In this document: positions 6,464 through 37,765 of the stretch, in pieces | Layout of the letters: every line of letters starts with the position of its first letter | Position numbering within the stretch: the first letter of the stretch is position 1 | Origin: Streptomyces sp. WZ.A104 | GTDB taxonomy: Bacteria; Actinomycetota; Actinomycetes; Streptomycetales; Streptomycetaceae | Assembly (NCBI RefSeq): GCF_002382885.1 | Contig: NZ_NWVL01000003.1 | Location: forward strand, 124,001 to 188,000 | DNA: 64,000 nt | Reading direction: 5' to 3' | Program-made: the position numbers and the translations under genes | Notes under the pieces: model-generated | What the model saw: only the letters and a program-made list of their open reading frames with translations | Told to the model about the DNA's origin: nothing | Databases searched by the model: none

Positions 6464-7096
6464 ATGCAGCAGGCCGTCAAGGTCGTCGGAATCGGAGGGT
6501 CCTCCCGGCCGGGTTCCACGGCGGAGCGGGGACTCCGTGTCGTGCTGGCCGAAGCGGCCCGGCTGGGTGCGGACGTCACCCTGATCGCCGGCGCCGACCT
6601 GGTGATGCCCCTCTACGATCCGCGCGCCGCGTCCCCGGAGCCCCGGGCACGGCGCATGCTGGCCGCGATCGCCGGGGCCGACGGGGTCGTCCTCGCCAGC
6701 CCGGCGTACCACGGGACGGTGTCGGGGCTGCTGAAGAACGCCCTGGACCACATCGAACAGCTGCGGGACGACGAACGGCCGTATCTGACGGGGCGCGCCG
6801 TCGGCTGCCTGGCCGTGGGGCAGGGCTGGCAGGGCGCGGTGACCACCCTGGCCACCCTGCGGGACGTGGTGCACGCGCTCCGGGGCTGGCCGACACCGCT
6901 GGGTGTGGCGCTGAACAGCGCGACGGCGGGGTTCACCGCGAGCGGCGAGTGCGACGACCCGCACATCCAGCGGCAGTTGAACGAGGTCGCCGCCCAGGTC
7001 GTCGAGTTCGGCGAGGCGCACCGGGCGCTGCGGGCCGCGGCACCCACCGCGCGGGCCGCCGTACCCACATCACTCACAGCGCTCCAGGCGGGGTGA
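6464..7096 (+). CDS. NADPH-dependent FMN reductase
   Basis: A 210-residue flavodoxin-fold reductase. VVGIGGSSRPGSTAERGLR is the FMN phosphate loop, and LASPAYHGTVSGLLKNALD is the second flavin-binding loop of the NADPH:FMN reductase family. It reduces free FMN for a partner monooxygenase. The likely partner is the luciferase-like enzyme at 16090, since that family uses FMNH2 supplied in trans. ATG 6464 is preferred over ATG 6452 because of the GGGTGGG just upstream. It is the first gene of the long rightward operon, and the thioesterase gene begins 2 bases after its stop. Confidence 0.9.
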   Translation: MQQAVKVVGIGGSSRPGSTAERGLRVVLAEAARLGADVTLIAGADLVMPLYDPRAASPEPRARRMLAAIAGADGVVLASPAYHGTVSGLLKNALDHIEQLRDDERPYLTGRAVGCLAVGQGWQGAVTTLATLRDVVHALRGWPTPLGVALNSATAGFTASGECDDPHIQRQLNEVAAQVVEFGEAHRALRAAAPTARAAVPTSLTALQAG

Positions 7097-7098
7097 CC

Positions 7099-7881
7099 AT
7101 GGACACCGAGGCGAGCTGGATCCGGTGCTTCCACCCGAAGCCACAGGCCGCGCACACCCTGGTCTGCTTTCCGCACGCGGGTGGTTCGGCCAGCTACTAC
7201 CACGGCCTCTCGGAGGTCCTGGACCCGGACATCGAGATGCTGGTGATCCAGTACCCGGGCCGGGAGAACCGGTTGTTCGAGGAGCCCGTCAGCTCCCTCC
7301 ACGCACTGGCCGACTCCGTGGCCGAGGTACTGCCCACCCGTCTCGGAGGCGCCCGGCGACCGGTCCTGTTCGGCCACAGCATGGGGGCGATCGTCGCCTT
7401 CGAGGCCGCGAGGCGGCTGGAGCGGGCGGGTGCCGTGATTCCCGAAGCGCTTGTCGCGTCGGCGTGTTCGGCCCCCTCGGGGCACCGCCCGGAGCGGGCG
7501 CTGCGGGCGGACGAGCAGCCCGACAGCGAGGTGCTCGCCCGGATCATGGGACTGGGCGGCACCGCCCGGGGCGTCGCCGAGCACGCCGAGCTGATCGAGC
7601 TGGTGCTCCCGGCGATCCGGGCCGACCTGGCCGCCCTCGGTTCCTACCGGGCGGCCGACGGCGCGACGGTGGGCTGCCCGGTCACCGTGTTCGTCGCGGA
7701 CGGCGACCACGAAGTGCGGCCCGCGGACGCCCGGTTGTGGGGAAGGCACACCACCGCCGGCGAACCCGGGGTGCACGTCTTCGAAGGGGATCACTTCTAT
7801 CTGAGCAAGCGGCCCGAAGGCTTTGTCGATCTGCTCCAGGAAACTGTGCGCACCTCTCGCCCGGAGAACTCACTCGGATGA
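7099..7881 (+). CDS. Type II thioesterase
   Basis: A 260-residue alpha/beta hydrolase of the external thioesterase type. FPHAGGSASYYHGL near residue 25 is the oxyanion region and GHSMGAIVAFEAARRLE carries the nucleophilic Ser. Late VADGDHEVRP and EGDHFYL supply the Asp and His. These proteins clear wrongly loaded acyl groups from carrier domains of NRPS and PKS lines. The stop overlaps the ATG of the first NRPS gene (ATGA at 7878-7881). Confidence 0.95.
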   Translation: MDTEASWIRCFHPKPQAAHTLVCFPHAGGSASYYHGLSEVLDPDIEMLVIQYPGRENRLFEEPVSSLHALADSVAEVLPTRLGGARRPVLFGHSMGAIVAFEAARRLERAGAVIPEALVASACSAPSGHRPERALRADEQPDSEVLARIMGLGGTARGVAEHAELIELVLPAIRADLAALGSYRAADGATVGCPVTVFVADGDHEVRPADARLWGRHTTAGEPGVHVFEGDHFYLSKRPEGFVDLLQETVRTSRPENSLG

Positions 7882-9570
7882 CAGCCACCATGGGATTCGT
7901 GGAAGAGGAGCTCGCCCAGGTGTGGGCCGAGCTGCTGGAGGTCACCGGCGCCCCGGTGGACCTGGACTCGGAGTTCGCCGGTCTCGGCGGCGGGCCGGAG
8001 CAGGCACGGCTCCTCGCCGCCCGTATCGACGAGGACCTCGGCGTGGACGTCCCCGCCGCCGAACTGCTCGGCGCGGGCACGCTGGCGGAGATGGCCCGCC
8101 TGGTGCGTGCCGCCATGGGCCGGGGCGCGGCGGGCCCGTCCCAGGGAGGTCCCGGGGCCGCCGGGCCCACCGGCCCCCGTCCCGGGGCCCGGCAGGAACG
8201 GCCCCAGCTGTCGTTCGCGCAGCAGCGGCTGTGGTTCATGCAGCAGATCGACCCCGACACCACCCTCTACAACGTGCCGACCGTGCTGCGTCTGCGCGGA
8301 GCCCTGGACCGGGCCGCGCTCGGCCGGGCCCTCGACGCCCTGGTCGCGCGCCACGAGGTGCTGCGCACGACGTACGCGGCGCCGTCCGGGCTCCCGTACC
8401 AGGTCATCGCGGACCCGGTGCCGCTTGAGCTGCCGTACACCGACCTGACGGGCGCCGCCGACCCGGAGGCCGAGGCGGAGCGCGTCGCGGCCGAGGAGGG
8501 CGCGGCCGTCTTCGACCTGGCCGCCGGGCCGCCGCTGCGGGTCCGGTTGGTGCGGGTCGGCGCGGACGAGCACCGGCTGATCGTGACGTTCCACCATGTG
8601 GCCGTCGACGGCTGGTCGGTGGAGATCCTCTTCCGCGAACTGGGGCAGCTGTACGGCGACGGCGAACCGCCCGCCGAGGTGCCGCTGCACTACGCCGACT
8701 ACGCCTCCTGGCAGCGCGACCGGCTCCGGGGCGAGACCCTGGACGCCCTCGTGGACCACTGGCGCGAGGCACTGGGCGACGACCCGAAGGCGCTCGCCGT
8801 GCCGACCGACAAGCCGCGGGGCACCGCACGCGGCTTCCGGGGGGCCGTCACGACACGCCAGCTCCGGCCGGAACTCGTGTCCGCCGTCCGTGAGTTCAGT
8901 CGTGGCGAGCGCGTCACTCCGTACATGACCCTGCTCGCCACCCTGCACACCCTGCTCGCCGGGTGGTCGGGCGCGGAGGACATCACGGTCGGCACCCCCG
9001 TCGCGGGACGGGACCGGCCCGAGCTCCAGGATCTGGTCGGCTGCCTGATCAACATGGTTCCGGTCCGGGTGCGGCTGGACGGCGGCCCCGGCTTCCGCGA
9101 GCTGCTGGCCCGGGTCCGTACGGCGGTGCTGGACGCCTCCGCCCACCAGGAGCTGCCCTTCGACAAGCTGGTCGAGGCGCTGGTCTCCCGGCGCAGCCGC
9201 GACTTCATGCCGGTCTTCCGGGTGATGTTCAGCTTCCTCAAGGAGCAGCCCGAGCCGGTGTTCGCCGGGCTCGACGGGTGCTCGCTGGACCTCACGGGCC
9301 CGCAGGACACCGCGAAGTACGACCTCAGCCTGTACGCGCAGGAGCGCGGCGACGGCCTGGCGCTGACCCTCGAATACGACACCGATCTGTTCGGCCCCGA
9401 CACCCCGGCCGCGCTGCTGGCCGCCTACGAACGGACGCTGGCCGAAGCCATTTCCCGGCCCGGGACACCGGTGACGGAGCTGGCGGCGGCGCGGTTCGCC
9501 GCCGGTACCGCGTCCGGACCGCAGAGCCCGCAGCCCCGCACCGAGTCCGGCACCGAGAGGAACACCCACC

Positions 9571-9581
<11 letters not shown>
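7878..9581 (+). CDS. NRPS: degenerate PCP plus condensation domain
   Basis: A 567-residue protein with a carrier-like domain (residues 10-75), a Gly/Pro/Ala linker (about 76-105) and a full condensation domain (about 108-545). The C domain has LSFAQQRLWFMQQ, the catalytic FHHVAVDGWS (HHxxxDG at 239-245) and the later DITVGTPVAGRDRPE, so it should form amide bonds. The carrier domain keeps the fold-like DSEF..LGGG...A pattern, but the phosphopantetheine Ser is Pro (residue 40, codon 7995-7997), so it cannot be loaded. With the A-PCP protein that follows it makes one split C-A-PCP module. It overlaps that gene by 11 bases. Confidence 0.9.
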
Positions 9582-11465
<1,884 letters not shown>

Positions 11466-11469
<4 letters not shown>

Positions 11470-14400
11470 CGTACGAGACGGATCTGCCACTGCCCGAGCA
11501 GGCGGTGGCCATCATCGGAATGAGCGGCCGCTTCCCGGGCGCCGCGGACGTCGACGAACTGTGGCGGCTGGTGGCGGCGGGCGAGGAGGGGCGCAGTACC
11601 TACACCGACGAGGAGCTGGCCGCGGCCGGAGTCCCCGAGCAGCTGCGGGACGACCCGGCGTACGTGAAGTCCGGTTTCCCCCTGGACGGGTTCGACCGCT
11701 TCGACGCCGACTTCTTCGGTGTCACCCGGTCCGAGGCCGAACTCATGGACCCCCAGCACCGGTTGCTGCTTGAGACGGCCTGGCAGGCGCTGGAGCGGGC
11801 CGGTTACCCGGCGAGGACGTTCGAGGGGCGGACCGGGGTGTTCGCCGGTACGTCGGGCAGCGGCTACCTCCAGGAGCGCATCGCCCCGCGCGGCGCCTTT
11901 GACGGCCTGGTCTCCGACGAGATCCAGGTGGCGATCGGCAACGACCCCGGGATGCTCGCGCTGCGCCTCTCGTACAAGCTCGGTCTGACCGGCCCCAGCT
12001 TCACCGTGCAGAGCGCCTGTTCGTCGTCGCTGGTGAGCGTCCACCTCGCCGTCCAGTCCCTGCTCAGCCGCGAGGCCGACCTCGCGCTGGCGGGCGGGGT
12101 CGCGGTGCGGGAGTTCGAGCCGCGCGGATACCGGTACGAGGAGGGCGCGATCCTCTCCACGGACGGTCACTGCCGCCCGTTCGACGCCGACGCCTCCGGC
12201 ACCGTCTCCGGTGACGGGGTGGCCCTGGTCGTCCTCAAGCGGCTGGAGGACGCCGTCGCCGACGGCGACCACATCCACGCGGTGATCCGCGGCAGCGCGG
12301 TCAACAACGACGGCTCCGCGAAGATCGGCTTCACCGCGCCTTCCCCGCACGGTCAGGCCGAGGTGATCGCCGAGGCGCTGGCGGTCGCCGGGGTCGAGCC
12401 CCGTACGGTGCAGTACGTCGAGGCGCACGGCACCGCCACCCCGCTCGGCGACCCGATCGAGGTCCAGGCGCTCACCGAGGCGTTCCAGCCCGACGCCCCC
12501 GCCGGATCGGTCCACCTGGGCTCGGTCAAGTCCAACGTCGGCCACCTCGACGCGGCGGCCGGGGTCACCGGCCTCATCAAGGCGGCCCTGGCGCTGGAGC
12601 ACCGCTTCATCCCGCCGACGGCCCACTTCCGCGCCCCCAACCCCGCACTCGGCCTCGACAAGGGCCCCTTCCGGGTCGACGCCGAAGGCGTGCCGTGGCC
12701 CGCGACGGAGCTGCCGCCGCGCGCCGGGGTGAGCGCCTTCGGAATCGGCGGCACCAACGCGCACGTCGTCCTCGAAGCAGCGCCCGCCCGCAGCACGGAG
12801 GCCCCCGACGGCGACTGGCAGGTGCTGCCGCTGTCCGCCCGTACGCCCGAAGCCCTCGACACCGCCGCCGCGCGCCTCGCGACGGCGCTCACGGCCGACG
12901 ACGGGACGCGGCAGGACCCCGCCGGGTTCGCCGACGCCGCCTACACCCTCCAGATCGGGCGCGCCGCCCTCCCGTACCGCCGCACGGTCGTCGCGGACAG
13001 CCGCGCCGCCGCGGCCGCCGCCCTGGAGCGGCCCGCGCCCGCCGCGTCCGCCGTGCCGGACGAGGCGCCCGGTGTGGTGTTCGTCTTCCCGGGCCAGGGC
13101 GCCCAGTACGCCGGTATGGGCGCGGAGCTGTACCGCACCGAGCCGGTGTTCCGCGAGGCGCTCGACCGGTGCGCCGAGATCCTGCTGCCCCACCTGGGCT
13201 GGGACGTACGGGAGGTGGCCTTCGCCACCGGCGGGGACGAGGCCCAGGAGCGGCTGCGCCGGACCCTGTACACCCAGCCGACCGTCTTCAGCCTCGACTA
13301 CGCCGTCGCCCAGCTGCTGATGTCGTGGGGCGTGCGCCCCGACGCGATGACCGGGCACAGCCTCGGCGAGCTCGTATCGGCCTGCCTGGCCGGGGTGTTC
13401 AGCCTGGAGGACGCGCTGCGCGTGGTCGCCCGGCGCGCCGCGCTCATGCAGGACCTGCCGCCCGGCCGGATGCTGTCCGTCCTGCTGGACGAGGCGGCCC
13501 TGACCGAGGCGCTGGACGGCCGCGCGACGATCGCCGCCGTCAACGCACCCGCCTCCTGCGTCGTCGCGGGCACCCCCGAAGAGGTCGCCGAGGCCCGCCG
13601 GGTGCTGGAGGAGCGGGGCGTGTCCGTACGGGAGCTGGAGACCTCGCACGCCTTCCACACCGCCCTGGTCGAACCGGCGCTGCCCGGCCTCGCGGAGGTG
13701 CTGCGCTCGGTGCGGCTCAACACCCCGAAGATTCCCTTCCTGTCCAATGTGACGGGCACCTGGATCACCGACGAGCAGGCCACCGACCCCGACTACTGGG
13801 TCTCCCACACCCGTGCCCCGGTCCGCTTCTCCGACGGGATCGCCGCCCTCGCCGAGCGCGGCGACGCCGTGGTCCTGGTCGAGGCCGGCCCGGGCAGCCA
13901 GCTCAGCGGACTGGTCCGGACCCACCCGGAGCCCTCGCCCGTCGTCACCCTGCTGCGCAAGCCGCGCGGCGAGGAGCGCACCGCCGAGGCCCGCACCGTC
14001 CGCGAAGGCCTTGCCGAGCTGTGGCGGCACGGGGTGGCCGCCGACTGGGCCGCCCTGCACGACGACCGGGCCCGCGGCCGGGTCCCGCTGCCCGCCTACC
14101 CCTTCCAGGGCCGCGGCCACCTGCTTCCGAAGCCGGAGACGGCGGCCGCCGGGAACGTACGCACCGACCCCGAGCGGTGGACGTACGCACCGGTCTGGCA
14201 CCCCGCACCGCTCCCCGGGGCGGCCCCGGAGGACGCCCCGCTCAGCTGGCTGGTGCTCCAGGACGACACCGGTCTCACCGACGCTCCGACCGCCGCCCTG
14301 CGCACCAGGGGCCACACCGTCACCACCGTGCGGAAGGCGACCGCCTACGCCCGCACCTCCGAGCACGGCTTCGACGCGGACCCCGCCGACGCGGACCACC

Positions 14401-16097
14401 TCGGCCGGGTCGTCGAGGAGCTGCGGCGCACGGGAGCGGCCCCCGACCGCGTGCTGCACGCCTGGGCCGTCACCGGCCCCGGGGACAACGCCGGTGACGC
14501 GGCGGGCCGTTACGCCACCGGCCTGGACACCGGGTTCCACAGCCTCGTCGCCCTCGCCCAGGCGCTCGGCGGCAGCGGGGAGGACCGCCCGGTGCGGATC
14601 GACGTCCTCACCGACAGCCTCCAGGACGCGTACGGGACGGCCGTGATCCGGCCCGAGCGGGCCACCCTGTACGGCGCGGTGACCGTGCTGCCGCAGGAGT
14701 ACGCGTGGCTGACCTGCCGCAGCGTCGACGTCACCCTCCCCGCCACCGACGCCGACCGCGCACGCGTCGCCGCGCAGCTGGACGCCGAACTCGCGGGGGA
14801 GGGGCGGGAGAGCCTCGTCGCCTACCGGGGCGCCCAGCGCCTCCTGCGCGCCTTCGCACCGGTCGGGCTGGAGCCCGTACCCACCGGGCGGGCCTGGCGT
14901 GCGGGCGCCGGGTACCTCGTCACCGGGGCGTCCGGCGAAACCGGACTGGTCTTCGCCGAGCAGATCGCCGCGAGCGGGGCGCGCGCCCTGCTCATCGGCG
15001 ACCCGGACTTCCCGGCCGAGAGCGAGTGGGACGCCTGGCGCGGCGGCACGGCGGGCGACGACGACCGGGTACGCGCCCGGGTCGCCCGGCTCGCCGCACT
15101 GCGCGCCGCCCACCCCGAGGCCGTCGTCTACCGCACCGCCGACCTGGCCGACCCCGGCCAGGCCCGTACCGCCGTCGAGGCGGCGCGGACCGTGCTGGGC
15201 GCGGTCGACGGCGTCCTGCACCTCGCCGACGCCCGGGGCTCCGGCCTGACCGCGCTCAAGACGCGGCCGGACTTCGAAGCCGTCCTCGCGGCCCGGGTGA
15301 GGTCGACCCTGCTGCTCGACGAACTGCTGGCGGACGACCCGCTCGACTTCTTCCTCACCGCGTCGGCCACCACCGGCATCGTCGGCGGCTTCGGACAGGC
15401 CGAGAACTGCGCCGCCGCCGCCTTCCTCGACGCCTTCGCCCAGGCCGCCACCGCCGCCGGCCGGCCCACCCTCGCCCTCGACTGGTCGCAGTGGGACTGG
15501 GACGACTGGTTCGAGCAGCAGATGGCGGGCCTGCCCGAGGTGCGGGAGCTGTACGAGCGGCTGCGCCTCGCCCAGGGCATCCCGGCCGCCGACGGCCTGG
15601 CGCTCGCCCGCGCCGCGCTCTTCGGCGCCCTGCCCCAGGTCGTCGTCTCCAGGGCCGACTTCCAGGACGTCCTGGCCGACCAGTCCGGGCTGACCGCGAC
15701 CTCGTTCACCGACTCGCTGGGCGGTGGCCGGGGCCGCGGAGACGACGACTGGGACCCGGCCACGGTCTGGCCGGACGACGAACTCGCCCAGGCCGTGGCC
15801 CGGGTGTGGCACGAGATGCTCGGCGTCTCCCCGATCGGGCCGGACGACGACTTCTACGACCTGGGCGGCAACTCGCTGTTCGCCATCCAGATCGTCGGGC
15901 GGCTGCGGCAGGCCCACGGCGACTTCCCGATGAGCGCCGTCTTCGAGGCGCCGACCGTACCGGGGCTCGCCGCCGCGATCCGCTCCCACCAGGCCGAATC
16001 GATCGGCCTGGACGAGTTCGAGGCACTGCTGCGCGAGGTCGAGAGCCTCTCCGCGGGCGAGGCCGAGGCAAAGCTGAAGGGTGACGACCATGTCTGA
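11466..16097 (+). CDS. Type I PKS module: KS-AT-KR(inactive)-ACP
   Basis: A 1543-residue module. KS (about 12-435) has the QSACSSSL Cys 185, EAHGTATPLGD and NVGHLDAAAG His. AT (about 535-860) has GHSLGE with Ser 632 and HAFH at 728, the malonyl-CoA signature. A KR-like region (about 1130-1400) has lost its chemistry: the cofactor loop is TGASGETG, the Lys position reads ARVRST, and GQANYAAANAF has become GQAENCAAAAF, replacing Tyr by Asn (1314) and the later Asn by Ala. ACP (about 1425-1500) has LGGNSLF with Ser 1470. I infer one malonate extension with the beta-ketone kept. It overlaps both neighbours. Confidence 0.92.
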
Positions 16098-25931: not shown

Positions 25932-27319
25932 CGACAGCGGCAGGACGAACGGCGGAGCCGGCACGGACCGCGGAACCGGCACGGACCACGACGGGGGACA
26001 GCGCGCACATGACGACGAGCACATCGCCCGGGCCCGCGCCCGGCCTGGGCCAGGGGTACGCCGACGACCGTGCCGCCACCGTCGGCTTCCTCGCCCGGAG
26101 CGAGGAAGCGCTGCGCGCCGCAGGCCCGGACCGGGTGGCGGCCGCCCCGCTGCACTCGGCCGCCCGCCGCGCCCGGCGGCGGTTCATGGAACGCCACGCG
26201 GCCGCCCTCTACGCCGAACTGACCGATGAGCGGCGTGAGTTCCTCAGGCTGGACGACCTCGCCGCCCGGGCGGACGCCCTGGTGCCCGGACTCGTACCGA
26301 CGAAGAGCCAGGCCGAGGAGGAGCGGCGCAGGCCGCAGCGCGACAAGGAGGGCCGGGAGACCGACCACGGGATCTTCTTCTGGGGCCTCCTGCGGGACGC
26401 CGTGGCCGGGCCGCACCTCCTGGAGGCGATGCGCAGGCCGACCCCGAAGGCGCTGGCCGCACTGCCCGGCTTCCGGGCCACCGGCCACGCCGACCTCGGC
26501 CTCGTCTCCGTGACGCGCCGGGGCGGCACGGGCGAGGTCACCGTGCACAACACACGGTTCCTCAACGCCGAGGACGACCTGCTGGTCGCCGCACTGGAGG
26601 CGGCCGTCGACCTGGTGCTGCTGGACGACTCGATCCGGGTGGGCGTGATGCGCGGCGCGCCGATGACCCACCCGCGCTACGCCGGGCGCCGGGTGTTCAG
26701 CGCGGGCATCAACCTCACCCGCCTCTACGAGGGCGAGATCTCGCTCATCGACTTCTTCCTGGGGCGCGAACTCGGCTACATCAACAAGATCTTCCGGGGG
26801 CTCAGCGTCCCGGACGACGGCACCGGCTGGCTTCCGGAATCCGTCGAGAAGCCCTGGATCGCCGCCGTGGACACCTTCGCGATCGGCGGCGGGGCACAGA
26901 TCCTGCTCGTCTTCGACCGGGTGATCGCCGCCGACGACGCCTACTTCACCCTCCCGGCCCTGCGCGAGGGGATCATCCCGGGCGCCGCCAACCTGCGGCT
27001 GCCCCGGGTCGCGGGCAACCGGCTGGCCCGGCAGGCGATCTTCGCCGACCGGCGGATCGACGCCGCATCGCCCGAGGGGCGGCTGCTGTGCGACGAGGCG
27101 GTCCCCGCGGACCGGCTGGACGCGGCGGTGGAGGCCGCGGCGGCCGAGCTGGCCAACCCGGCCGTCGTCAACAACCGCCGTGTCCTGCACGCCCACGAGG
27201 AGCCCGAGGACGAGTTCCGGCACTACATGGCGACATACGCCGTGGAGCAGTGCAGACGTCTGACCAGCAGCGACCTGGTGGAAAACCTGGAACGCACATG
27301 GATATCGAGGAACCGATGA
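25928..27319 (+). CDS. DpgC-like cofactor-independent oxygenase (enoyl-CoA hydratase fold)
   Basis: A 463-residue crotonase-fold protein related to DpgC, which converts 3,5-dihydroxyphenylacetyl-CoA to the glyoxylate with O2 and no cofactor. The helical N-terminal region, GRRVFSAGINLTRLYEGEI, FAIGGGAQILLVFDRVIAAD and EGIIPGAANLRLPRVAGNRL follow the DpgC pattern. None of the usual partners (type III PKS DpgA, DpgB, DpgD) is present, so the substrate differs. An acyl-thioester made or held on one of the flanking NRPS proteins is likely. The N-terminus has a repeated REPAR/TAEPART-like stretch; ATG 26009 is an alternative start. ATGA overlap with the NRPS before. Confidence 0.88.
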   Translation: MTTAAGRTAEPARTAEPARTTTGDSAHMTTSTSPGPAPGLGQGYADDRAATVGFLARSEEALRAAGPDRVAAAPLHSAARRARRRFMERHAAALYAELTDERREFLRLDDLAARADALVPGLVPTKSQAEEERRRPQRDKEGRETDHGIFFWGLLRDAVAGPHLLEAMRRPTPKALAALPGFRATGHADLGLVSVTRRGGTGEVTVHNTRFLNAEDDLLVAALEAAVDLVLLDDSIRVGVMRGAPMTHPRYAGRRVFSAGINLTRLYEGEISLIDFFLGRELGYINKIFRGLSVPDDGTGWLPESVEKPWIAAVDTFAIGGGAQILLVFDRVIAADDAYFTLPALREGIIPGAANLRLPRVAGNRLARQAIFADRRIDAASPEGRLLCDEAVPADRLDAAVEAAAAELANPAVVNNRRVLHAHEEPEDEFRHYMATYAVEQCRRLTSSDLVENLERTWISRNR

Positions 27320-28923
27320 CCACCACCGACAGCCTCCCCGGCACCCTGCCCCACCGCACGATGTACCAGTGGTTCGAGGAATCCGCCCTGCGGCTGCCCG
27401 GCCACCCCGCGCTGGAGATCGGCGACGAGGTCCTCACCTACGCCGAACTGCGCCGCCTCGCCCTCACCCTGGCCGCCCGCATCGTGCACAAGCACGGCGG
27501 GCTGCCCGACCGGGTCGCGCTCGCCGCCACCCGCTCGGTGGGCGCGTACGCCGGATATCTGGCGATCCAGCGGCTCGGCGCGGCCGTGGTGCCGCTGAAC
27601 CCGGACTACCCGCAGCAGCGCAACCTCGACATCGCCCAGCGCGCCGGGGTCACCGTCGCTCTCGTCGACGACCGGGCCGCGGGCCTCTTCGGGCTGCTTC
27701 CCGAGCGGCACCGGCCGACCGTGCTGGAGCTGGCCGAGGACGAGCGCGCCGACCCGGACCTGCTGGAAGGGGCGCTCCAGGAGACGCTGCCGCCGGTCCC
27801 CGCCGACCTCGGACGCGAGGCCTACCTCCTGTTCACCTCGGGGTCCACCGGCCAGCCCAAGGGCGTGCCGATCCTGCACCGCCAGTTCTCCCCGTACCTC
27901 GAACACAACATCCCGCGCTACGAGATCGGCCCGGGCAGCCGCCTCACCCAGGTCTTCGGCCTGACCTTCGACGCGCACGCCTTCGACCTCTTCGCGACCT
28001 GGGGCGGCGGCGGCACCCTGGTCGTCCCGACGGCGGCCGACCTCTACTCGCCGGTCGACTTCATCGTGGAGCGGGAGCTGACCCACTGGTTCTCGGTGCC
28101 GTCGGTGGTGCGCGAGGCCCAGCGGCTCGGCAACCTCCCGCTGGGGCGCTGCGTCACCCTCAAGCACAGCCTGTTCGGCGCCGAGCCGGTCACCGTCCAG
28201 CACGTCGCGCTGTGGCGGGAGGTGGCCCCGAACTCGGCGATCCACAACATGTACGGCCCGACCGAGGTGACCATCTGCTGCTCCAACCACCTCCTGACCG
28301 GCCCCAGTTCGAGCTGGGCCGAGTTCAGCGGCGGCACGGTGCCGATCGGCACGATGTACCCGGGCATGGAAGGCGTCCTGCTGGACGAGGACGGGCGGGA
28401 GGCGGACGAGGGCGAGCTGTGCGTACGCGGCCCGCAGCGCTTCGACGGCTATCTCGACCCGCGCGAGAACACCGGCCGCTTCCTCCGGTACGAGGAGGGC
28501 GGCCGGGCCACCGTGTACGACGGCTCCGGCCCGCTCACCGACCGCCACTGGTACCGCACCGGTGACCGGGTCCGCCGCGAGGGCGGGGTCATGGTGCACT
28601 GCGGCCGGCTCGACCAGCAGGTCAAGATCCGCGGCCACCGGGTGGAGATCGGCGAGGTGGAGGCGGTCGTCCGCCGCCACCCGGCGATCGTCGACGTCGC
28701 CGTGATCGCGCTCCCGACGGCGGAGGGGGAGACCGAGCTGGTCGCCGCCTACGCGGGCCGGGAGACGGACCCGGCGCGGTTCGACGCCTGGCTGCGCGAG
28801 CAGGTCCCGCTGCACATGGTGCCCGCGCGGATCACCCGGCTGGACGGCCTGCCGCTCAACGACAACGGAAAGACGGACCGCAACGCACTGGCGCGGATCC
28901 TCGGCACCCCGGAGGGGTCATGA
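27316..28923 (+). CDS. Stand-alone adenylation domain
   Basis: A 535-residue single-domain amino acid adenylating enzyme. All cores are intact: YLLFTSGSTGQPKGVP, FDAHAFDLF, NMYGPTEVT, YRTGD, VKIRGHRVEIGEVE and DNGKTDR with the catalytic Lys. The residues lining the pocket read D-A-F-F-L-G-M-I-C-K, which I cannot assign to a substrate; Asp235 points to an alpha-amino acid. It carries no PCP. Its position beside an NRPS whose own A domain is dead (22692) suggests it charges that PCP in trans. Its start overlaps the stop of the DpgC-like gene; an ATG at 27298 is a possible alternative. Confidence 0.9.
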   Translation: MTTTDSLPGTLPHRTMYQWFEESALRLPGHPALEIGDEVLTYAELRRLALTLAARIVHKHGGLPDRVALAATRSVGAYAGYLAIQRLGAAVVPLNPDYPQQRNLDIAQRAGVTVALVDDRAAGLFGLLPERHRPTVLELAEDERADPDLLEGALQETLPPVPADLGREAYLLFTSGSTGQPKGVPILHRQFSPYLEHNIPRYEIGPGSRLTQVFGLTFDAHAFDLFATWGGGGTLVVPTAADLYSPVDFIVERELTHWFSVPSVVREAQRLGNLPLGRCVTLKHSLFGAEPVTVQHVALWREVAPNSAIHNMYGPTEVTICCSNHLLTGPSSSWAEFSGGTVPIGTMYPGMEGVLLDEDGREADEGELCVRGPQRFDGYLDPRENTGRFLRYEEGGRATVYDGSGPLTDRHWYRTGDRVRREGGVMVHCGRLDQQVKIRGHRVEIGEVEAVVRRHPAIVDVAVIALPTAEGETELVAAYAGRETDPARFDAWLREQVPLHMVPARITRLDGLPLNDNGKTDRNALARILGTPEGS

Positions 28924-31472
28924 CTGATACGGCCGAAGCTACGGACCCGGCCGCCCGCCTGGAGTGGTGGCGCACCGAACTGGCGGGCCTCGACCCCCTG
29001 GAGCTGCCCGCCGACCGCCCGCGCCCCTCGGTGCGCGAGCCCGGTACGGCCCGCCGCACGCACACCGTCCCGGCCGCCACGGCGGACGCCCTGCGCAAGG
29101 CCGCGGCCGGATACGGCGCGCCGCTGCCGGTGGTGCTGCTCGCGGCGTACCAGCTGCTGCTGGGGCGCTGGAGCCGCCGGCAGGACGTGGCCGTCGGCAC
29201 GCCCGTGGCGGAGGAACTCGCCGTCATACGCACCGATCTGGCGGCGGCGACCTTCGGGGACCTGGTGGACCGGGTCGGTGCGGCGCTGCGCGGGGCCCAG
29301 GACCGGAGCGTCCCGTTCCAGCAGCTCGTCACCGCCCTCGTACCGGAACCGGACAGCGGCCACCACCCGCTGGTACAGGCTCTGTTCACCGGACCGGAGG
29401 GCGGTGGAGCCCCCCTCGCCGGCACCTGCCCGCCCGACCTCCAGCTGACCCACGAGGACGACGGGACCGGGCTTCGGCTCCACCTCGACCACAGCACCGC
29501 GCTCTTCGACGCGGCGACCGCCGAGCGGTTCGCCGGGAACCTCCTCACCCTGCTCACCACCGTCGCCCGGCACCCCGGCAGCGCGCTGGGCGACCTCGAC
29601 CTGCTCGACGGGGCCGAGCGGCGCCTGCTGCTCACCGAGTGGAGCGCCGGCCCCGCCGCCCGCCCGGCCGACCGCCAGGTCGCCGAGCTGGTGGCCGAGC
29701 AGGCCGGGCGGACCCCCCAAGCGGTCGCCGTGGTCTTCGGCGACGAGGAGGTCACGTACGGCGGTCTCAACGCCCGCGCCAACCGGCTGGCCCACCACCT
29801 GAGGTCGCTCGGGGTCGCGCCGGACGTTCCCGTCGGCGTCTGCCTGGAGCGCGGCCCCGAGCTGATCGTCGCGCTGCTCGCGGTCCTGAAAGCGGGCGGG
29901 GCATACGTACCGCTCGACCCCGAACACCCCCTGGACCGAATCGACTTCGTCCTGCGCGACACCGCCGCACCCGTCGTCGTCACCCAGGAGACCCTGCGCG
30001 GACGGCTCGCCGCCGAGGGCCGCGCCCTCGTCACCGTCGACACCGACCGCGAGGCGATCGCCACCGCCGACGCGGCGGACCCCGCCTCCACCACCGGGCC
30101 GGACGACCTCGCCTACGTCCTCTACACCTCCGGGTCGACCGGCACCCCCAAGGGCGTCGCCATCACGCTCGGTTCACTGACCGGCCTGCTCCTGGGGATG
30201 CGGGAGGTCTTCCCGGCGCCCGCGAGCGACCGGGTCCTGTTCACCACCTCGGCCACCTTCGACATCGCGAACGTCGAGGTGTTCCTGCCGCTGGTCACCG
30301 GGGGCCGGATCATCGGCGCCGACCGCGAACAGGTCCACACCCCCGGCGCTCTCGCCGCCCTCGTCGACCGGCACGACGTCACCCTCGTCCAAGCCACCCC
30401 GTCGGCGTGGCGGCCGCTCCTGGACGCCCTCGGCGACCGGCCGGGACCGCGCGACCTGACCGTCTTCACCGCCGGGGAGGCGCTCCCCGCCGACCTGGCC
30501 GCGAAGATGCTGCGCGCGGGCCGCCGGGTCGTCAACGGATACGGCCCGACCGAGACCACGGTCTACGCGACGGTCGCCGAGATCCGCGACGCGGCGGGCC
30601 CCGTACCGATCGGCCGCCCCACCCCGGGCACCGAGGTGTACGTCGTGGACGAGGCCGACCGGCCGGTGCCCGTCGGCGTACCCGGTGAACTCCTCATCGG
30701 CGGCCGGGGCGTGGCACGCGGCTACCTGGGCCGCCCGGAGCTGACCGGGGAGCGGTTCACCGCGCACCCCTTCCCCGGGCACGCGGCCGACGGGGCGTCC
30801 GCCCGGGTGTACCGCACCGGGGACCTGGTGCGGTGGCTGCCCGACGGGAACCTGGAGTTCCTCGGGCGCCTGGACCACCAGGTGAAGGTGCGCGGCTTCC
30901 GCATCGAGCTGGGCGAGATCGAGTCCGCGCTCCTGGCCCACGCAGATGTGGACGCCTGCGTGGTGACCGTCCGCGAGGACGTTCCCGGCGGCGTCCCCGG
31001 CGAGAAGGCGCTCGTCGCGTACTGCGTACCGGCACAGGGCCGCACCCCGGGCGTGGGCGCCCTGCGCGACTGGTGCGGGCGCGGGCTGCCCGGCTACATG
31101 GTGCCTGGCGCGTTCGTCTTCCTCGACCGGCTGCCGCTGACCACCAGCGGCAAGACCGACCGCACCGCGCTGCCCGCCCCGGACGGCGAACGGACCGGCC
31201 TGGAAGCCGAGTTCGTGGCACCCCGTACCCCCGCGGAGCGCGCCGTCGCCCGCGTGTGGGCGGACGCGCTGTGGGCGGACGAGGTCGGCGCCCACGACGA
31301 CTTCTTCGAACTCGGCGGCGACTCGCTGACCGCGACCCGGACGGCGCTGCGGCTCCAGGAGGAATTCGGCCTGGAGATCCCGGTGCGGGTGCTGTTCACC
31401 TGCTCGACGGTCGAGACGCTGGCGAAGGCCCTGACCACGGCGCGCCGCGCAGGCGGATTCCCGGCGGCCTGA
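28920..31472 (+). CDS. NRPS: half condensation domain-A-PCP
   Basis: An 850-residue protein. It opens with the C-terminal lobe of a condensation domain (LEWWRTELAGLDPLELPADRP, DVAVGTPVAEE, residues 10-245). The N-terminal lobe with the HHxxxDG motif is missing, so it cannot condense. The A domain (about 255-745) is intact; its specificity residues read D-I-V-Q-F-A-G-V-Y-K, for which I have no match. The PCP (GGDS, Ser 802) is intact. This pattern fits a loading module or one aided by a C domain in trans. It is the last gene of the tightly overlapping operon; a 175-base gap follows. Confidence 0.9.
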   Translation: MTDTAEATDPAARLEWWRTELAGLDPLELPADRPRPSVREPGTARRTHTVPAATADALRKAAAGYGAPLPVVLLAAYQLLLGRWSRRQDVAVGTPVAEELAVIRTDLAAATFGDLVDRVGAALRGAQDRSVPFQQLVTALVPEPDSGHHPLVQALFTGPEGGGAPLAGTCPPDLQLTHEDDGTGLRLHLDHSTALFDAATAERFAGNLLTLLTTVARHPGSALGDLDLLDGAERRLLLTEWSAGPAARPADRQVAELVAEQAGRTPQAVAVVFGDEEVTYGGLNARANRLAHHLRSLGVAPDVPVGVCLERGPELIVALLAVLKAGGAYVPLDPEHPLDRIDFVLRDTAAPVVVTQETLRGRLAAEGRALVTVDTDREAIATADAADPASTTGPDDLAYVLYTSGSTGTPKGVAITLGSLTGLLLGMREVFPAPASDRVLFTTSATFDIANVEVFLPLVTGGRIIGADREQVHTPGALAALVDRHDVTLVQATPSAWRPLLDALGDRPGPRDLTVFTAGEALPADLAAKMLRAGRRVVNGYGPTETTVYATVAEIRDAAGPVPIGRPTPGTEVYVVDEADRPVPVGVPGELLIGGRGVARGYLGRPELTGERFTAHPFPGHAADGASARVYRTGDLVRWLPDGNLEFLGRLDHQVKVRGFRIELGEIESALLAHADVDACVVTVREDVPGGVPGEKALVAYCVPAQGRTPGVGALRDWCGRGLPGYMVPGAFVFLDRLPLTTSGKTDRTALPAPDGERTGLEAEFVAPRTPAERAVARVWADALWADEVGAHDDFFELGGDSLTATRTALRLQEEFGLEIPVRVLFTCSTVETLAKALTTARRAGGFPAA

Positions 31473-31647: not shown

Positions 31648-32892
31648 ATGAGTGACAAGCCGGTGCTTCTCGTCGTCTACGACACGGGGAGCCTCGCACC
31701 GACCAGGCTGGCCGAAGCCGCCCGGGACAACGGCTGCTCGCTGGTCTTCGTGACGGCCGGAACCGACCACGCGCGGGAGATGATCCCCACGCTGGAGACG
31801 GTCGGTTCCGTCGTGGACGCGGCGGGCCGCACCGAGGCGGAGCTCGTGGCGGAACTGCGCGCGCTCGGCCCGGCGGGCATCATCACCTTCAGCGAGTTCC
31901 AGATCGCCCCGACCGTACGGCTCGCCGACGCACTCGGGCTGCGCTACCACCGGCCCGCCGACGTCGACGCGATCACCCACAAGGACCTCCAGCGGCAGCG
32001 CTTCGCCGAGGCGGGCGTCGACAGCGTCCGCTTCCGTACGATCACCGGCACCGAACAGGCCGACGAGGCAATCGCGTACGTCGGACTGCCCGCCATCATC
32101 AAGCCGGTGATCGGCGCCTCCAGCCGCAACACCCAGGCCGTGGCGACGGCCGAGGAGTGCCACGCGGCCCTGGCCCAGATGTTCTCCGGCGACGACGGCC
32201 CCGCCGAGACCGCGGTGATGCTGGAGGAGCTGCTCGTCGGCCGGGAGACCCCGGCCCCCTGGGGCGACTACATCGCGGTGGACTGCGTCGCCGACGGCGA
32301 CGACGTCCGGCCGGTCTTCGTGACCAGCAAGTTCGCACTGGCCGAGCCCTTCCGCGAGCGCGGCGGCTACGGCGGCTTCTCCGTCGTGCCGCAGGACGAG
32401 GAACTGGCCGTACGGGACCTGGCGTGCCGCGCGGTACGCGCCCTGAACATCCACGGCGTCGCCGACGTCGAGATCAAGCTGACCGCCGAAGGCCCCCGGG
32501 TCATCGAGGTCAACGGCCGCCTCGGCGCCTGGGTCGACGACCTCGCGATCCGCTCGGGCACCTCCGACCCCGCCCGGGTGGCGGTCGCCGCCGCGCTCGG
32601 CCTGCCGTACGAGACACCCGAGGTCAAACAGGACGGCCCGATCGCCTTCCACTACCTGATCGTGCCGCCGGTCGGGGCCCGCAAGGTGGCCTCGATCCGC
32701 AACGTCTCCGCCCTGCGCCGACTGCCCGACGTGGACCGCGTCACCGTGCTGGCCGAACCGGGCGCCGCCGCCGACTGGCGCATCGGCGCACGCGGCAACA
32801 CGGCGGCCGTCATCGGCTCCGCCGCGAACCACCGGCAACTGGCCGCGACCGTCGCCGCCATCGAGAACGTGGACTGGATCACCTATGAGTGA
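31648..32892 (+). CDS. ATP-grasp ligase
   Basis: A 414-residue ATP-grasp enzyme, the superfamily that joins a carboxylate, through an acyl phosphate, to an amine or thiol. Landmarks are AIIKPVIGASSRNTQAV (nucleotide Lys and flexible loop), VMLEELLVGRE, VADVEIKLTAEGPRVIEVNGRLG (the metal-binding Glu and Asn). An N-terminal pre-ATP-grasp Rossmann-like part (LLVVYDTG...) comes first. It may form a peptide or amide bond in building or tailoring the cluster product. The next gene starts inside its 3' end (8-base overlap), tying it to the HAD phosphatase. Confidence 0.88.
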   Translation: MSDKPVLLVVYDTGSLAPTRLAEAARDNGCSLVFVTAGTDHAREMIPTLETVGSVVDAAGRTEAELVAELRALGPAGIITFSEFQIAPTVRLADALGLRYHRPADVDAITHKDLQRQRFAEAGVDSVRFRTITGTEQADEAIAYVGLPAIIKPVIGASSRNTQAVATAEECHAALAQMFSGDDGPAETAVMLEELLVGRETPAPWGDYIAVDCVADGDDVRPVFVTSKFALAEPFRERGGYGGFSVVPQDEELAVRDLACRAVRALNIHGVADVEIKLTAEGPRVIEVNGRLGAWVDDLAIRSGTSDPARVAVAAALGLPYETPEVKQDGPIAFHYLIVPPVGARKVASIRNVSALRRLPDVDRVTVLAEPGAAADWRIGARGNTAAVIGSAANHRQLAATVAAIENVDWITYE

Positions 32893-33586
32893 GTTCGTCA
32901 TCTTCGACCTGGACGGCGTCCTGGTCGACACCCAGGACGCCGAGAACGGCGGGCTCGCGTACATCGGCGAGCTGATGGGTCTTCCCCTCGGCAAGGACCA
33001 GCGGGACGAGCTGTTCTCCGGAAAGAAGATGCAGGAGTGCCTCGACCTCATGGAGGAGATCACCGGCACCCCGCCGCCCGCCGGAGCCATGGCGCTCGCC
33101 CGCGCCAAGTGCGACGAGCTGATCGGCTCCTGGCTGGAGCCCATCGAGGGGGTCGCCCACGCCCTGGAGCAGCTGAGCGCGACCCCCAGCACCGGCATGT
33201 GCGTCGCCTCCAACAGTCCGCCGGACATCATGGCGGACCGCCTCGGCAAGGCGGGCATCCTGCACCACTTCGAGGGCCGGCTCTTCTCCGCGTACGACAT
33301 CAACGCCTGGAAGCCCGACCCGAAGCTGTTCCTGTGGGCGGCCGCCGAGTGCGCCGCCGACGTGGACGACTGCATCGTCGTCGAGGACAGCCCGGTCGGT
33401 GTGGACGCCGCACTCGGCGCCGGGATGCGGGTCCTCCAGTACACCGCCGACCCCGCCGTCGGCCCGCACCGCGACGGCGTCCGCACCTTCCCCTCCCTGC
33501 GCGAACTGCCCGGCCTGGTCCGCGAAGCGCACCGGCTCGCGCCCCCCACCTCGCTCGCCACCGCACCCCTCGGAGGTACGTCATGA
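32885..33586 (+). CDS. HAD-superfamily phosphatase
   Basis: A 233-residue haloacid-dehalogenase-type hydrolase of the beta-phosphoglucomutase/phosphatase subgroup. Motif I is FDLDGVLVDTQ with the nucleophilic Asp, motif II is VASNSPP, motif III is WKPDPKLF and motif IV is IVVEDSPVG. An alpha-helical cap lies between motifs I and II. It probably removes phosphate from a small intermediate. It overlaps both neighbours (ATGAGTGA with the ATP-grasp gene; ATGA with the dehydrogenase), so the three are a translationally coupled unit that I assign to the cluster. Confidence 0.88.
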   Translation: MSEFVIFDLDGVLVDTQDAENGGLAYIGELMGLPLGKDQRDELFSGKKMQECLDLMEEITGTPPPAGAMALARAKCDELIGSWLEPIEGVAHALEQLSATPSTGMCVASNSPPDIMADRLGKAGILHHFEGRLFSAYDINAWKPDPKLFLWAAAECAADVDDCIVVEDSPVGVDAALGAGMRVLQYTADPAVGPHRDGVRTFPSLRELPGLVREAHRLAPPTSLATAPLGGTS

Positions 33587-34716
33587 ACCAGCCCCGCAAG
33601 ATCATGGTCCTGGGCGCCGGAGACCTCGGCCGCCGCGTCTTCCACGAACTCGCCCACAGCACCGGCGAGCGGCACGTCCAACTGGTCGGCCGGGATGAGG
33701 AAGTGGCGCTGCGAGCCACGAACCTGACCCGCTTCTGCGCCGTACAGCGCGGCTACGCGCCCACCGTCAGCCACGCCCTGACGGACCTGACCGACGTGGC
33801 GCGCACCGCCGAACGCATCGCGGCCTTCGCACCGGACGTCATCTTCCTCGCCGCCAGCTACCAGTCGTGGTGGGTCATCTCCACCCTGGAGGCCTCCGCC
33901 TTCCAGCGCGTGTACGCCGCCAACTACGGCCCCTGGCTGCCGATGCACCTGGTCCCGGTGATGAAGGCCATGGAAGCCGTCAAGCTCTCCGGGACCGAGG
34001 CCGTCGTCGTCAACGCGGCCTACCCCGACGCCGTGCACCCGGCGCTCACCGCGATCGGCCTCTCGCCCCACATCGGCATCGGCAACGTCGCCAACAACGT
34101 GCCCGGCATCACCGCGGCCGCCGCCGACGAGCTCGGCCGCTCCACCGCCGACGTCGAGGTGCGGCTCGTCGCCCACCACTACGTCTCGCACCGCCTGTCG
34201 CGCCACGGCAACAGCGGCCCGGCCGCGATGGGCCTCGGCATCCGCCTCGACGGCCGCGACGTGACGGCCGAGCTCGACACCGCCGCCCTCCTCCGCAGGC
34301 TCCCCGCCCAGTACCGCCGAACCGGCGGTCTGGCCGGCCAGACCATGACGGCGGCCTCGGCGCTGAGCGTCCTGGAGCCGCTGGCCGACGGGCGGGACGC
34401 GGTCGTCCACGCGCCCGGCACGGACGGCGCGCTGGGCGGCTTCCCCGTGGCGATCGAGTCCGGAAAGTTCCGGCCACTGCTGCCGGACGGCATGACCGAC
34501 GAGGAGGCCCACGCGATCAACCTGTCGGGCCAGGCGCAGGACGGCATCCGCGAGATACGCGCGGACGGCACCGTCGTCTTCGAGCCCGCGTCGATGGCCG
34601 TCATGACCGAAGAACTGGGCTACGACTGCGCCGAGATGAAGCTGTCGGAGGCGGAGGGCCGGGCGCGGGAGATCAGCGAGCGGTTCGCGGCGTACCGGGC
34701 CAGGACGACGGGCTGA
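33583..34716 (+). CDS. NAD(P)-binding Rossmann dehydrogenase, saccharopine-dehydrogenase-like
   Basis: A 377-residue protein with an N-terminal dinucleotide fold (IMVLGAGDLGRRVF), VQLVGRDEE at the end of beta-2, and APDVIFLAASYQSWW. The rest is an unfamiliar catalytic domain with HHYVSHRLSRHG and a C-terminal helical part. The general plan is that of saccharopine-dehydrogenase-like or malate/opine-type oxidoreductases, but I do not recognise a characterised subfamily. The gene order with a ligase and a phosphatase suggests a small route making or altering a building block. Start ATG 33583 has GGAGG six bases upstream. Confidence 0.75.
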   Translation: MNQPRKIMVLGAGDLGRRVFHELAHSTGERHVQLVGRDEEVALRATNLTRFCAVQRGYAPTVSHALTDLTDVARTAERIAAFAPDVIFLAASYQSWWVISTLEASAFQRVYAANYGPWLPMHLVPVMKAMEAVKLSGTEAVVVNAAYPDAVHPALTAIGLSPHIGIGNVANNVPGITAAAADELGRSTADVEVRLVAHHYVSHRLSRHGNSGPAAMGLGIRLDGRDVTAELDTAALLRRLPAQYRRTGGLAGQTMTAASALSVLEPLADGRDAVVHAPGTDGALGGFPVAIESGKFRPLLPDGMTDEEAHAINLSGQAQDGIREIRADGTVVFEPASMAVMTEELGYDCAEMKLSEAEGRAREISERFAAYRARTTG

Positions 34717-37698: not shown

Positions 37699-37765
37699 GG
37701 CTCCCATTGTCCCCGGAGCGGCGAGTGGGCGGTGAGGGCCCTCGTGACGAACTACGCTCGGGGCC

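What the first reader, a model, noticed from the sequence alone, without database searches (positions are those of the whole stretch)
6464..34716. Unmatched hybrid NRPS-PKS cluster with many non-canonical domains
In one compact operon there are a dead PCP, a dead KR, a dead A domain, a half C domain, a C domain with an altered HHxxxDG, a Cys-type TE, a stand-alone A protein, a luciferase-like monooxygenase and a DpgC-like oxygenase without DpgA/B/D. An ATP-grasp/HAD/dehydrogenase set follows. I know no described cluster with this set. Module use must be non-collinear and partly in trans.
Basis: partly seen in the sequence, partly recalled or inferred. Interest (0 to 1): 0.8.

Follow-up and report, generated by a model that had tools for sequence, protein, structure and literature searches.

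The report
Conserved unusual NRPS-PKS gene cluster
A Streptomyces gene cluster encodes an assembly line for an unknown small molecule, and because relatives in three genera share its 'broken' parts it looks like an unusual working design rather than a damaged one.

Summary
The cluster is larger than stated (about 4100-35763). It is not unmatched: nine other public genomes (six Streptomyces, one Sphaerisporangium, two Saccharothrix) carry it, though ten paper searches found no characterised product and no curated cluster set was available.

The odd residues are shared by every ortholog that has the gene. Substitution rates sort them: the Ser-less carrier and the half C domain evolve loosely, like relics; the dead KR, dead A, Cys thioesterase and altered C domain stay within the range of intact domains.

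Best explanation: a split line. A Thr-type residue is extended by malonyl-CoA. Because the KR is dead, the β-ketone survives, which the MupA-family luciferase-like monooxygenase needs to α-hydroxylate the chain. Glycine is added and a Cys thioesterase releases the product. A stand-alone A protein loads the carrier beside the dead A domain.

The DpgC-like enzyme is optional (6 of 10 clusters). It keeps the residues I recall as catalytic but groups apart from canonical DpgC proteins, without DpgA/DpgB in its cluster. The ATP-grasp/HAD/dehydrogenase trio is a separable unit of unknown chemistry.

The parts
4100..5014 (+). LysR-family regulator (ORF opens at 3758; HTH starts near 4109; true start not fixed)
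   Evidence: Pfam HTH_1/LysR_substrate; seen in 6 of 10 clusters
5094..6245 (-). Aspartate-semialdehyde dehydrogenase-like protein, third paralogue in the genome
   Evidence: NCBIfam PRK14874, 346 bits against cut-off 223; the two other genomic copies are 39-40% identical; seen in 5 of 10 clusters
6464..7096 (+). NADPH-dependent FMN reductase, probable partner of the LLM
   Evidence: PF03358 (on the longer ORF from 6395); seen in 6 of 10 clusters
7099..7881 (+). Type II thioesterase (name from reading and cluster context; NCBIfam gave only weak alpha/beta-hydrolase hits, Pfam was not run on it)
   Evidence: Translation; NCBIfam; orthologs
7878..9581 (+). T*-C: Ser-less carrier domain plus intact condensation domain (HHVAVDG)
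   Evidence: Pfam; no Ser at the carrier site in 8 of 8 orthologs, window included; T* dN/dS 0.51-0.75 against C 0.19-0.36
9571..11469 (+). A-T; specificity residues DVWNVAMVH, Thr-like (code names recalled)
   Evidence: Pfam; code identical in 10 of 10
11466..16097 (+). PKS KS-AT(HAFH, malonyl-type)-KR*-ACP
   Evidence: Pfam; KS Cys, AT and ACP motifs intact, KR Tyr to Asn in 10 of 10
16081..17352 (+). Luciferase-like monooxygenase, MupA/Atu3671 family
   Evidence: TIGR04020 E=2.9e-134; nearest solved structure PuwE 6ket, E=1.7e-100; 10 of 10 clusters
17349..21428 (+). C(DHLVWDR)-A(DILQLGVIW, Gly-like)-T-TE(Cys)
   Evidence: Pfam; variant residues in 10 of 10; nearest solved TE ABBFA_003403 4zxh
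21421..22695 (+). MFS transporter
   Evidence: PF07690
22692..25931 (+). C(HHIVFDG)-A*(inactive)-T
   Evidence: Pfam; A10 Lys absent in 10 of 10
25928..27319 (+). DpgC-like dioxygenase, grouped apart from canonical DpgC
   Evidence: NF042432 513 bits; tree and residues; 6 of 10 clusters
27316..28923 (+). Stand-alone adenylation protein (DAFFLGMIC)
   Evidence: Pfam; A3, A5 and A10 intact; 10 of 10 clusters
28920..31472 (+). half-C-A-T (DIVQFAGVY)
   Evidence: Best Pfam C stretch from profile position 191; half C dN/dS 0.70-0.78; 8 of 10 clusters
31648..32892 (+). ATP-grasp ligase (BacD-like amino-acid ligase superfamily)
   Evidence: Pfam; nearest solved BacD 3wnz, E=4e-8
32885..33586 (+). HAD hydrolase
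   Evidence: PF13419
33583..34716 (+). Dehydrogenase-like protein (GxGDLG N-terminus), unnamed family
   Evidence: No Pfam or NCBIfam hit; profile against PDB weak
34777..35763 (+). NAD-dependent epimerase/dehydratase-family protein
   Evidence: PF01370; 8 of 10 clusters, beside the A and C-A*-T genes in Sphaerisporangium

Best explanation
A hybrid NRPS-PKS cluster for a small, so far uncharacterised peptide-polyketide. Core line (genes present in 10 of 10 clusters): A-T loads a Thr-type residue. The one-module PKS extends it with malonyl-CoA and, because its KR is inactive, leaves a β-ketone. The MupA-family LLM, supplied with FMNH2 by the cluster's FMN reductase, hydroxylates the α-carbon on the ACP. 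The C-A-T-TE adds a glycine-type residue and releases the chain through a Cys thioesterase. A second line feeds in amino-terminal residues: the stand-alone A protein loads, in trans, the T domain next to the dead A domain. The T*-C and half-C-A-T proteins together act as one further extension (half-C-A-T initiates, the C of T*-C condenses). T* and the half C are relics. The DpgC-like enzyme is an optional oxygenase that alters the unit handled by the stand-alone A protein. The ATP-grasp/HAD/dehydrogenase unit makes or attaches a separate building block. Shown by sequence: gene content, dead or variant residues, conservation, co-occurrence, relaxed or constrained evolution. Inferred: substrates, order of modules, in-trans loading, the α-hydroxylation step, the role of DpgC and of the trio. 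The product is not known.
For: Nine orthologous clusters, odd residues shared, coupled genes (7 of 11 junctions overlap by 4 bases). LLM is 10 of 10 and above the TIGR04020 cut-off. Published in vitro work on MupA, the namesake, requires MupA, an FMN reductase, the cognate ACP and a β-keto substrate, and saw no conversion of the β-hydroxy substrate (PMC10952193, passages), which gives the dead KR a reason. The related cluster in G020 pairs an LLM with a shorter PKS where nothing aligns to the KR motifs. A10 Lys is lost in the cis A domain (10 of 10) and present in the stand-alone A (10 of 10). T*-C and half-C-A-T are both present in 8 and both absent in 2 clusters. dN/dS sets T* and the half C apart from the other domains. 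Specificity residues are constant: DVWNVAMVH 10 of 10; DILQ(L/I)GV(I/V)W 10 of 10.
Against: No product, no biochemistry, no expression data. Specificity names rest on recalled codes. The two Saccharothrix clusters keep C-A*-T but lack T*-C, so how residues are joined there is unclear. FMN reductase was found in only 6 of 10 clusters. The ten clusters are not ten independent events: several are close relatives (the window, ISL-100, ISL-96 and S. albidochromogenes; the two Saccharothrix). dN/dS of dead A (0.33-0.55) and dead KR (0.29-0.52) overlaps that of intact domains such as the C of C-A*-T (0.23-0.46) and the stand-alone A (0.22-0.51), short domains are noisy (the intact T of C-A*-T reaches 0.69 against S. 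roseolus), four species pairs only, no test of significance. Absence calls cover only the fetched regions at E <= 1e-8.
Confidence: 0.6

Rival explanations
1. A decaying cluster: the inactive domains are damage and no product is made.
For: T* and the half C evolve loosely (dN/dS 0.51-0.78); DpgC is missing in some strains, with a 59-residue remnant in ISL-100; ISL-96's A-T gene appears split.
Against: No stop codon in the window's cluster genes; KS, AT, ACP, C, A, T and TE motifs intact and constrained; similar layout in three genera; the odd residues are shared by the orthologs rather than scattered.
Confidence: 0.08
2. A known, already characterised product family that my tools could not name.
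For: No curated cluster database was available; only open-licence papers were searched; the cluster occurs in ten genomes.
Against: Ten paper searches named none, but asked about single enzymes, one search was blunt ('HAD' also matches the verb), and the lists were capped. The nearest layouts looked into (ichizinone gene table; chalkophomycin passages) differ.
Confidence: 0.25
3. The LLM acts as a Baeyer-Villiger enzyme on the β-ketoacyl chain rather than as an α-hydroxylase, so the product carries an inserted ester or a shortened chain.
For: Flavin monooxygenases as a group do this chemistry too (introduction of PMC10952193).
Against: TIGR04020 membership with MupA, and the nearest solved relative is PuwE, whose monooxygenase is assigned to a 3-amino-2-hydroxy-acyl unit (PMC4219810).
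Confidence: 0.12
4. The Cys thioesterase closes a strained four-membered ring, as SulM (β-lactam) and ObiF (β-lactone) do.
For: Cys nucleophile in 10 of 10 clusters; a Thr-type residue is in the chain; the loop after the seventh strand, where SulM and ObiF have their Asp, also carries acids in 10 of 10 (residues 1309, 1310, 1313).
Against: The SulM Gln-Cys-Asn motif is Trp-Cys-Tyr here. The acid after the sixth strand is also kept (Asp 8, Glu 2 of 10). The best solved match is ABBFA_003403, which PMC11298585 calls AB3403 and describes as Cys with Asp after the sixth strand; no entry named SulM or ObiF is among 47 matches up to E=10. My first estimate of 0.08 was raised because I had wrongly read the seventh-strand loop as lacking a conserved acid.
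Confidence: 0.12

Closest known systems
Mupirocin α-hydroxylation bimodule (MupA)
   Same: LLM of the same NCBIfam family acting in trans on a PKS; needs a β-keto ACP substrate and an FMN reductase
   Different: Here a single PKS module with its own AT inside an NRPS line; KR dead rather than acting after hydroxylation; FMN reductase encoded in the cluster (6 of 10); no KS0 bimodule seen
Puwainaphycin PuwE
   Same: Monooxygenase closest among solved structures (6ket); PKS-NRPS junction
   Different: puwE is described as a fused PKS-aminotransferase-oxygenase-NRPS gene; no aminotransferase here; amino-acid rather than fatty-acid starter (inferred)
DpgABCD pathway (3,5-dihydroxyphenylglycine)
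   Same: DpgC-like dioxygenase with the residues I recall as catalytic kept
   Different: No DpgA/DpgB found in the cluster; grouped apart in the tree; position 320 Leu instead of Ala
AB3403 (A. baumannii NRPS, 4zxh)
   Same: Nearest solved thioesterase; Cys nucleophile, acid after the sixth strand
   Different: Different assembly line; described as uncharacterised in PMC11298585
Ichizinone cluster (ich)
   Same: Streptomyces single-module NRPS genes, one-module PKS, stand-alone FMN-dependent LLM, type II TE, MFS
   Different: KS-ACP PKS without AT, MbtH, cyclase; no DpgC-like, stand-alone A or ATP-grasp in the gene table read

Membership tests
Hybrid NRPS-PKS biosynthetic cluster | A, T, C and KS, AT, ACP domains with intact active-site motifs in one gene set | tested here: met
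   Pfam; motifs
Hybrid NRPS-PKS biosynthetic cluster | Makes a peptide-polyketide product | not testable with these tools
   No metabolite data
MupA/Atu3671 LLM family (TIGR04020) | Score above the curated cut-off | tested here: met
   447.5 against 244.45 bits
MupA/Atu3671 LLM family (TIGR04020) | Partner PKS module whose KR lacks the catalytic Tyr, so that a β-ketone can remain | tested here: met
   Tyr to Asn in 10 of 10; inactivity itself is inferred
MupA/Atu3671 LLM family (TIGR04020) | α-hydroxylation of ACP-bound β-ketoacyl | not testable with these tools
   Needs assay
DpgC, (3,5-dihydroxyphenyl)acetyl-CoA 1,2-dioxygenase | NCBIfam equivalog cut-off 530 | tested here: not met
   513.1 bits
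DpgC, (3,5-dihydroxyphenyl)acetyl-CoA 1,2-dioxygenase | DpgA and DpgB alongside | tested here: not met
   None at E <= 1e-5 in the window or the orthologous regions; present in 11 of 12 stretches around other DpgC homologues, the query's own stretch included
DpgC, (3,5-dihydroxyphenyl)acetyl-CoA 1,2-dioxygenase | DpgD alongside | not tested
   No search made for DpgD itself
DpgC, (3,5-dihydroxyphenyl)acetyl-CoA 1,2-dioxygenase | Residues E189, I235, R254, G296, Q299, A319 (roles and numbers recalled) | tested here: met
   All kept in 6 of 6
SulM/ObiF strained-ring thioesterases | Cys nucleophile | tested here: met
   10 of 10
SulM/ObiF strained-ring thioesterases | Triad Asp after the seventh strand (position II) | tested here: inconclusive
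   Acids are kept both after the sixth strand (1205) and after the seventh (1309, 1310, 1313); no structure
SulM thioesterase | Gln-Cys-Asn motif | tested here: not met
   Trp-Cys-Tyr in 10 of 10
Bacilysin-type ATP-grasp amino-acid ligase (BacD) | Equivalog score | tested here: not met
   38.7 bits against 850; only superfamily-level similarity

The most novel reading that the evidence does not exclude
The DpgC-like enzymes of this cluster and of two other loci (in G021 and G023) form a second functional class of cofactor-free DpgC dioxygenases. They no longer serve the 3,5-dihydroxyphenylglycine pathway but oxidise another aryl- or alkyl-acetyl thioester, possibly carrier-bound, to supply an arylglycine- or α-keto-type unit that the stand-alone A protein and the C-A*-T carrier insert in trans. 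Some strains make a DpgC-free congener by losing the gene.
Probability: 0.3. Interest if true: 0.65.

Novelty: new variant of a known kind. Interest (0 to 1): 0.5.

Why it matters
It gives ten natural versions of one split assembly line, including versions without DpgC, without the T*-C plus half-C-A-T pair, and without the FMN reductase. That makes questions about non-collinear NRPS-PKS lines directly testable: whether dead A domains are served in trans, whether a dead KR is kept to feed an α-hydroxylase, and whether DpgC chemistry exists outside the dihydroxyphenylglycine pathway. It also points to a metabolite family for which I found no described product.

Tried and rejected
Considered and rejected: (a) a lone decaying cluster: nine orthologs share the features. 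(b) Sphaerisporangium lacking C-A*-T and the stand-alone A: my first reading from 10-kb flanks was wrong; they lie on the opposite strand upstream. (c) β-lactone/β-lactam closure by the Cys TE: not favoured, but not excluded. (d) Chalkophomycin and ichizinone as the same cluster: the ichizinone gene table lacks the diagnostic genes; the chalkophomycin text has no mention of luciferase or ATP-grasp (I saw passages and only the start of its table).

Led nowhere: plasmid searches with DpgC and the dehydrogenase (alphaproteobacterial and cyanobacterial relatives, three of the four rows opened lie beside alanine racemase and HAD genes). Structure prediction of the dehydrogenase gave mean pLDDT 52.6 and was not used for a fold search. 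A profile search of PDB gave only Rossmann-level hits. A first DpgC tree used wrong reading frames for five rows and was discarded; one search replaces it. A comparison with G225 showed a dehydrogenase and an ATP-grasp homologue in another setting.

Rows dropped: the ISL-100 DpgC remnant was left out of the tree; G020 and S. atriruber are not counted among the ten clusters; for the half-C-A-T gene the SxLuteola and G020 rows are other NRPS genes and are not counted; orthologs under 40% identity or above E=1e-8 were not taken.
Full report
What was checked. The window lies in a genome of 8.1 Mb in 188 contigs. The cluster genes have no internal stop. From the FMN reductase at 6464 to the half-C-A-T gene ending at 31472, consecutive genes are coupled: of eleven junctions nine overlap by 4 to 11 bases, one by 17, one has a 2-base gap. 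Then 175 bases separate the ATP-grasp/HAD/dehydrogenase genes, which overlap each other.

The listed oddities are real; see the observation check. Two need qualification. The altered C motif keeps the second His and the Asp. The DpgC-like protein scores 513.1 bits against an equivalog cut-off of 530.

Relatives. A search of 295 Streptomyces genomes with the dehydrogenase found a match in 19. So the cluster was seen in 3 of 295, own genome included; a cluster without this dehydrogenase would have been missed. The scan of named genomes returned ten loci, nine with the NRPS genes: Streptomyces sp. ISL-100, ISL-96, CG 926, MUM 178J, S. roseolus, S. albidochromogenes, Sphaerisporangium album, Saccharothrix luteola and Saccharothrix sp. 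ALI-22-I; the tenth is S. atriruber. Full regions were compared. Of six neighbouring window ORFs (including Gdh, cystathionine synthase and GreA), none matches these regions (one 32% match, to G020, a related but different cluster), so the cluster is a discrete unit.

Gene content over the ten clusters, window included, fetched regions only. A-T, PKS, LLM, C-A-T-TE, MFS, C-A*-T, stand-alone A, ATP-grasp, HAD, dehydrogenase: 10 of 10. T*-C and half-C-A-T: 8 of 10, both absent in the two Saccharothrix. Epimerase-family gene: 8. Type II TE: 7. DpgC-like: 6 (absent in ISL-100, which keeps a 59-residue remnant, ISL-96, CG 926 and Sphaerisporangium). FMN reductase and LysR: 6 each. Asd-like: 5. In Sphaerisporangium the C-A*-T, stand-alone A and epimerase genes form a separate divergent group, which supports their acting together. 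The ten are not independent samples; several are close relatives.

Are the dead domains decay or design? The odd residues are shared: carrier without Ser 8 of 8; KR Tyr to Asn 10 of 10; TE Cys 10 of 10; C motif DHLVWDR 10 of 10; A10 Lys missing in C-A*-T 10 of 10; half C 8 of 8. Counting dN/dS of the window against S. albidochromogenes, ISL-100, CG 926 and S. roseolus: T* 0.51-0.75 and half C 0.70-0.78, against 0.19-0.36 for the C next to T* and 0.17-0.39 for the A next to the half C. Dead A is 0.33-0.55 and dead KR 0.29-0.52, above KS (0.14-0.20) but overlapping intact domains such as the C of C-A*-T (0.23-0.46) and the stand-alone A (0.22-0.51). Cys TE is 0.15-0.49 and the variant C 0.12-0.35. 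So T* and the half C behave as relics or linkers, KR* and A* look like retained scaffolds, and the TE and variant C like working parts. Against this: short domains are noisy (the intact T of C-A*-T reaches 0.69 with S. roseolus), there are four pairs only, and I made no significance test.

Mechanism. The LLM belongs to the MupA/Atu3671 family, and its nearest solved relative is PuwE. Passages of PMC10952193 report that α-hydroxylation needs MupA, an FMN reductase, the cognate ACP and a β-keto substrate, and that the β-hydroxy substrate was not converted. A dead KR beside this LLM, with a cluster-borne FMN reductase in 6 of 10, fits that requirement. In the related cluster G020, which also pairs a PKS (41% identical) and an LLM (44%), nothing aligns to the KR motifs. 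Specificity residues, read by recalled GrsA numbering and named from recall, are DVWNVAMVH (Thr-like) for A-T and DILQLGVIW (Gly-like) for C-A-T-TE, nearly invariant in the family. The AT carries HAFH (malonyl-type, recalled; one ortholog reads RAFH). C-A*-T has lost the A10 Lys while the stand-alone A protein keeps it in all ten, so in-trans loading is the simplest reading. The joint presence or absence of T*-C and half-C-A-T suggests one split extension step.

Release. The Cys TE is nearest to ABBFA_003403 (4zxh) among solved structures. PMC11298585 (passages) places the triad Asp of the ring-closing SulM and ObiF after the seventh strand (position II) and that of AB3403 after the sixth (position I). 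Here the acid after the sixth strand is kept (Asp in 8, Glu in 2), but acids are also kept in the loop after the seventh, so sequence alone does not settle the triad. No entry named SulM or ObiF is among 47 matches up to E=10. A strained-ring product is not favoured, nor excluded.

The DpgC-like enzyme. Around 13 other DpgC homologues in 12 stretches, DpgA and DpgB are present in 11 stretches and absent in one, L126. In the tree the six cluster proteins, L126 and one of two neighbouring copies in L125 are separated from the 11 remaining proteins by a branch with support 100/99; the L125 copy does lie near DpgA/DpgB, beside a canonical DpgC. The residues I recall as catalytic are all kept; position 320 is Ala in 11 of 11 of the canonical side, Leu in 6 of 6 cluster proteins and Met in the other two. 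The window genome has no DpgA-like protein above 36% identity. The stand-alone A reads DAFF at its first four code positions in all six DpgC-bearing clusters; of the four without DpgC, ISL-100 and ISL-96 still read DAFF, CG 926 DAIF and Sphaerisporangium DVAF. This hints that the two act on the same unit, on very few cases.

The trio. The ATP-grasp resembles BacD-type ligases only at superfamily level. In S. atriruber the trio sits with a dehydroquinate-synthase-like protein, cupin, SDR, aminotransferase and glutamine-synthetase-like genes. I cannot say what it makes.

Known or new. Ten paper searches named no such cluster; four of them asked about single enzymes. They cover open-licence papers only, with capped lists, and no curated cluster database was at hand, so a known product remains possible (I put it at one in four). 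Papers seen as passages: PMC12144821, PMC3849588, PMC11085572, PMC4219810, PMC11298585, PMC10952193, PMC8739492; all others as listings only.

Noticed in passing
L040/L051 (S. atriruber): ATP-grasp/HAD/dehydrogenase trio in a different setting with dehydroquinate-synthase-like, cupin, SDR, DegT aminotransferase, class II amidotransferase, WelO5-like, glutamine-synthetase-like and Rieske genes.
   Followed up: partly
G020, L097-L098 and L061: A related but different NRPS-PKS cluster with LLM (44%), PKS (41%), stand-alone A (43%), ATP-grasp (68%), dehydrogenase and HAD.
   Followed up: partly
L089:11685-13435 (Sphaerisporangium album): Short prephenate-dehydratase-like protein, cupin and branched-chain aminotransferase between the two arms of the cluster; possibly makes a non-proteinogenic amino acid for the stand-alone A.
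   Followed up: partly
L125:7559-10309: Two DpgC-type genes side by side, one on the canonical and one on the non-canonical side of the tree.
   Followed up: partly
L126:7986-9374: DpgC-type gene directly after a 2489-aa NRPS reading frame, no DpgA or DpgB in the 17 kb fetched.
   Followed up: partly
window 5094-6245: Third aspartate-semialdehyde dehydrogenase paralogue of the genome, 39-40% to the other two; precursor supply or self-resistance copy.
   Followed up: partly
L060:12646-13941 and L059-L066: Distant dehydrogenase (42-44%) and HAD pairs recur in other Streptomyces; in L060 a transaldolase-like gene lies between them.
   Followed up: partly
L077 (ISL-96), A-T gene: Ortholog of the A-T gene matches in two pieces in different frames, a frameshift or sequencing error.
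   Followed up: no
L082/L083 (MUM 178J), C-A*-T gene: About 460 bases separate two matching parts inside the dead A domain.
   Followed up: no
window 36595-37851 (-): 418-aa ORF with 95% GC at third positions but no Pfam match; not found in the other cluster regions.
   Followed up: no
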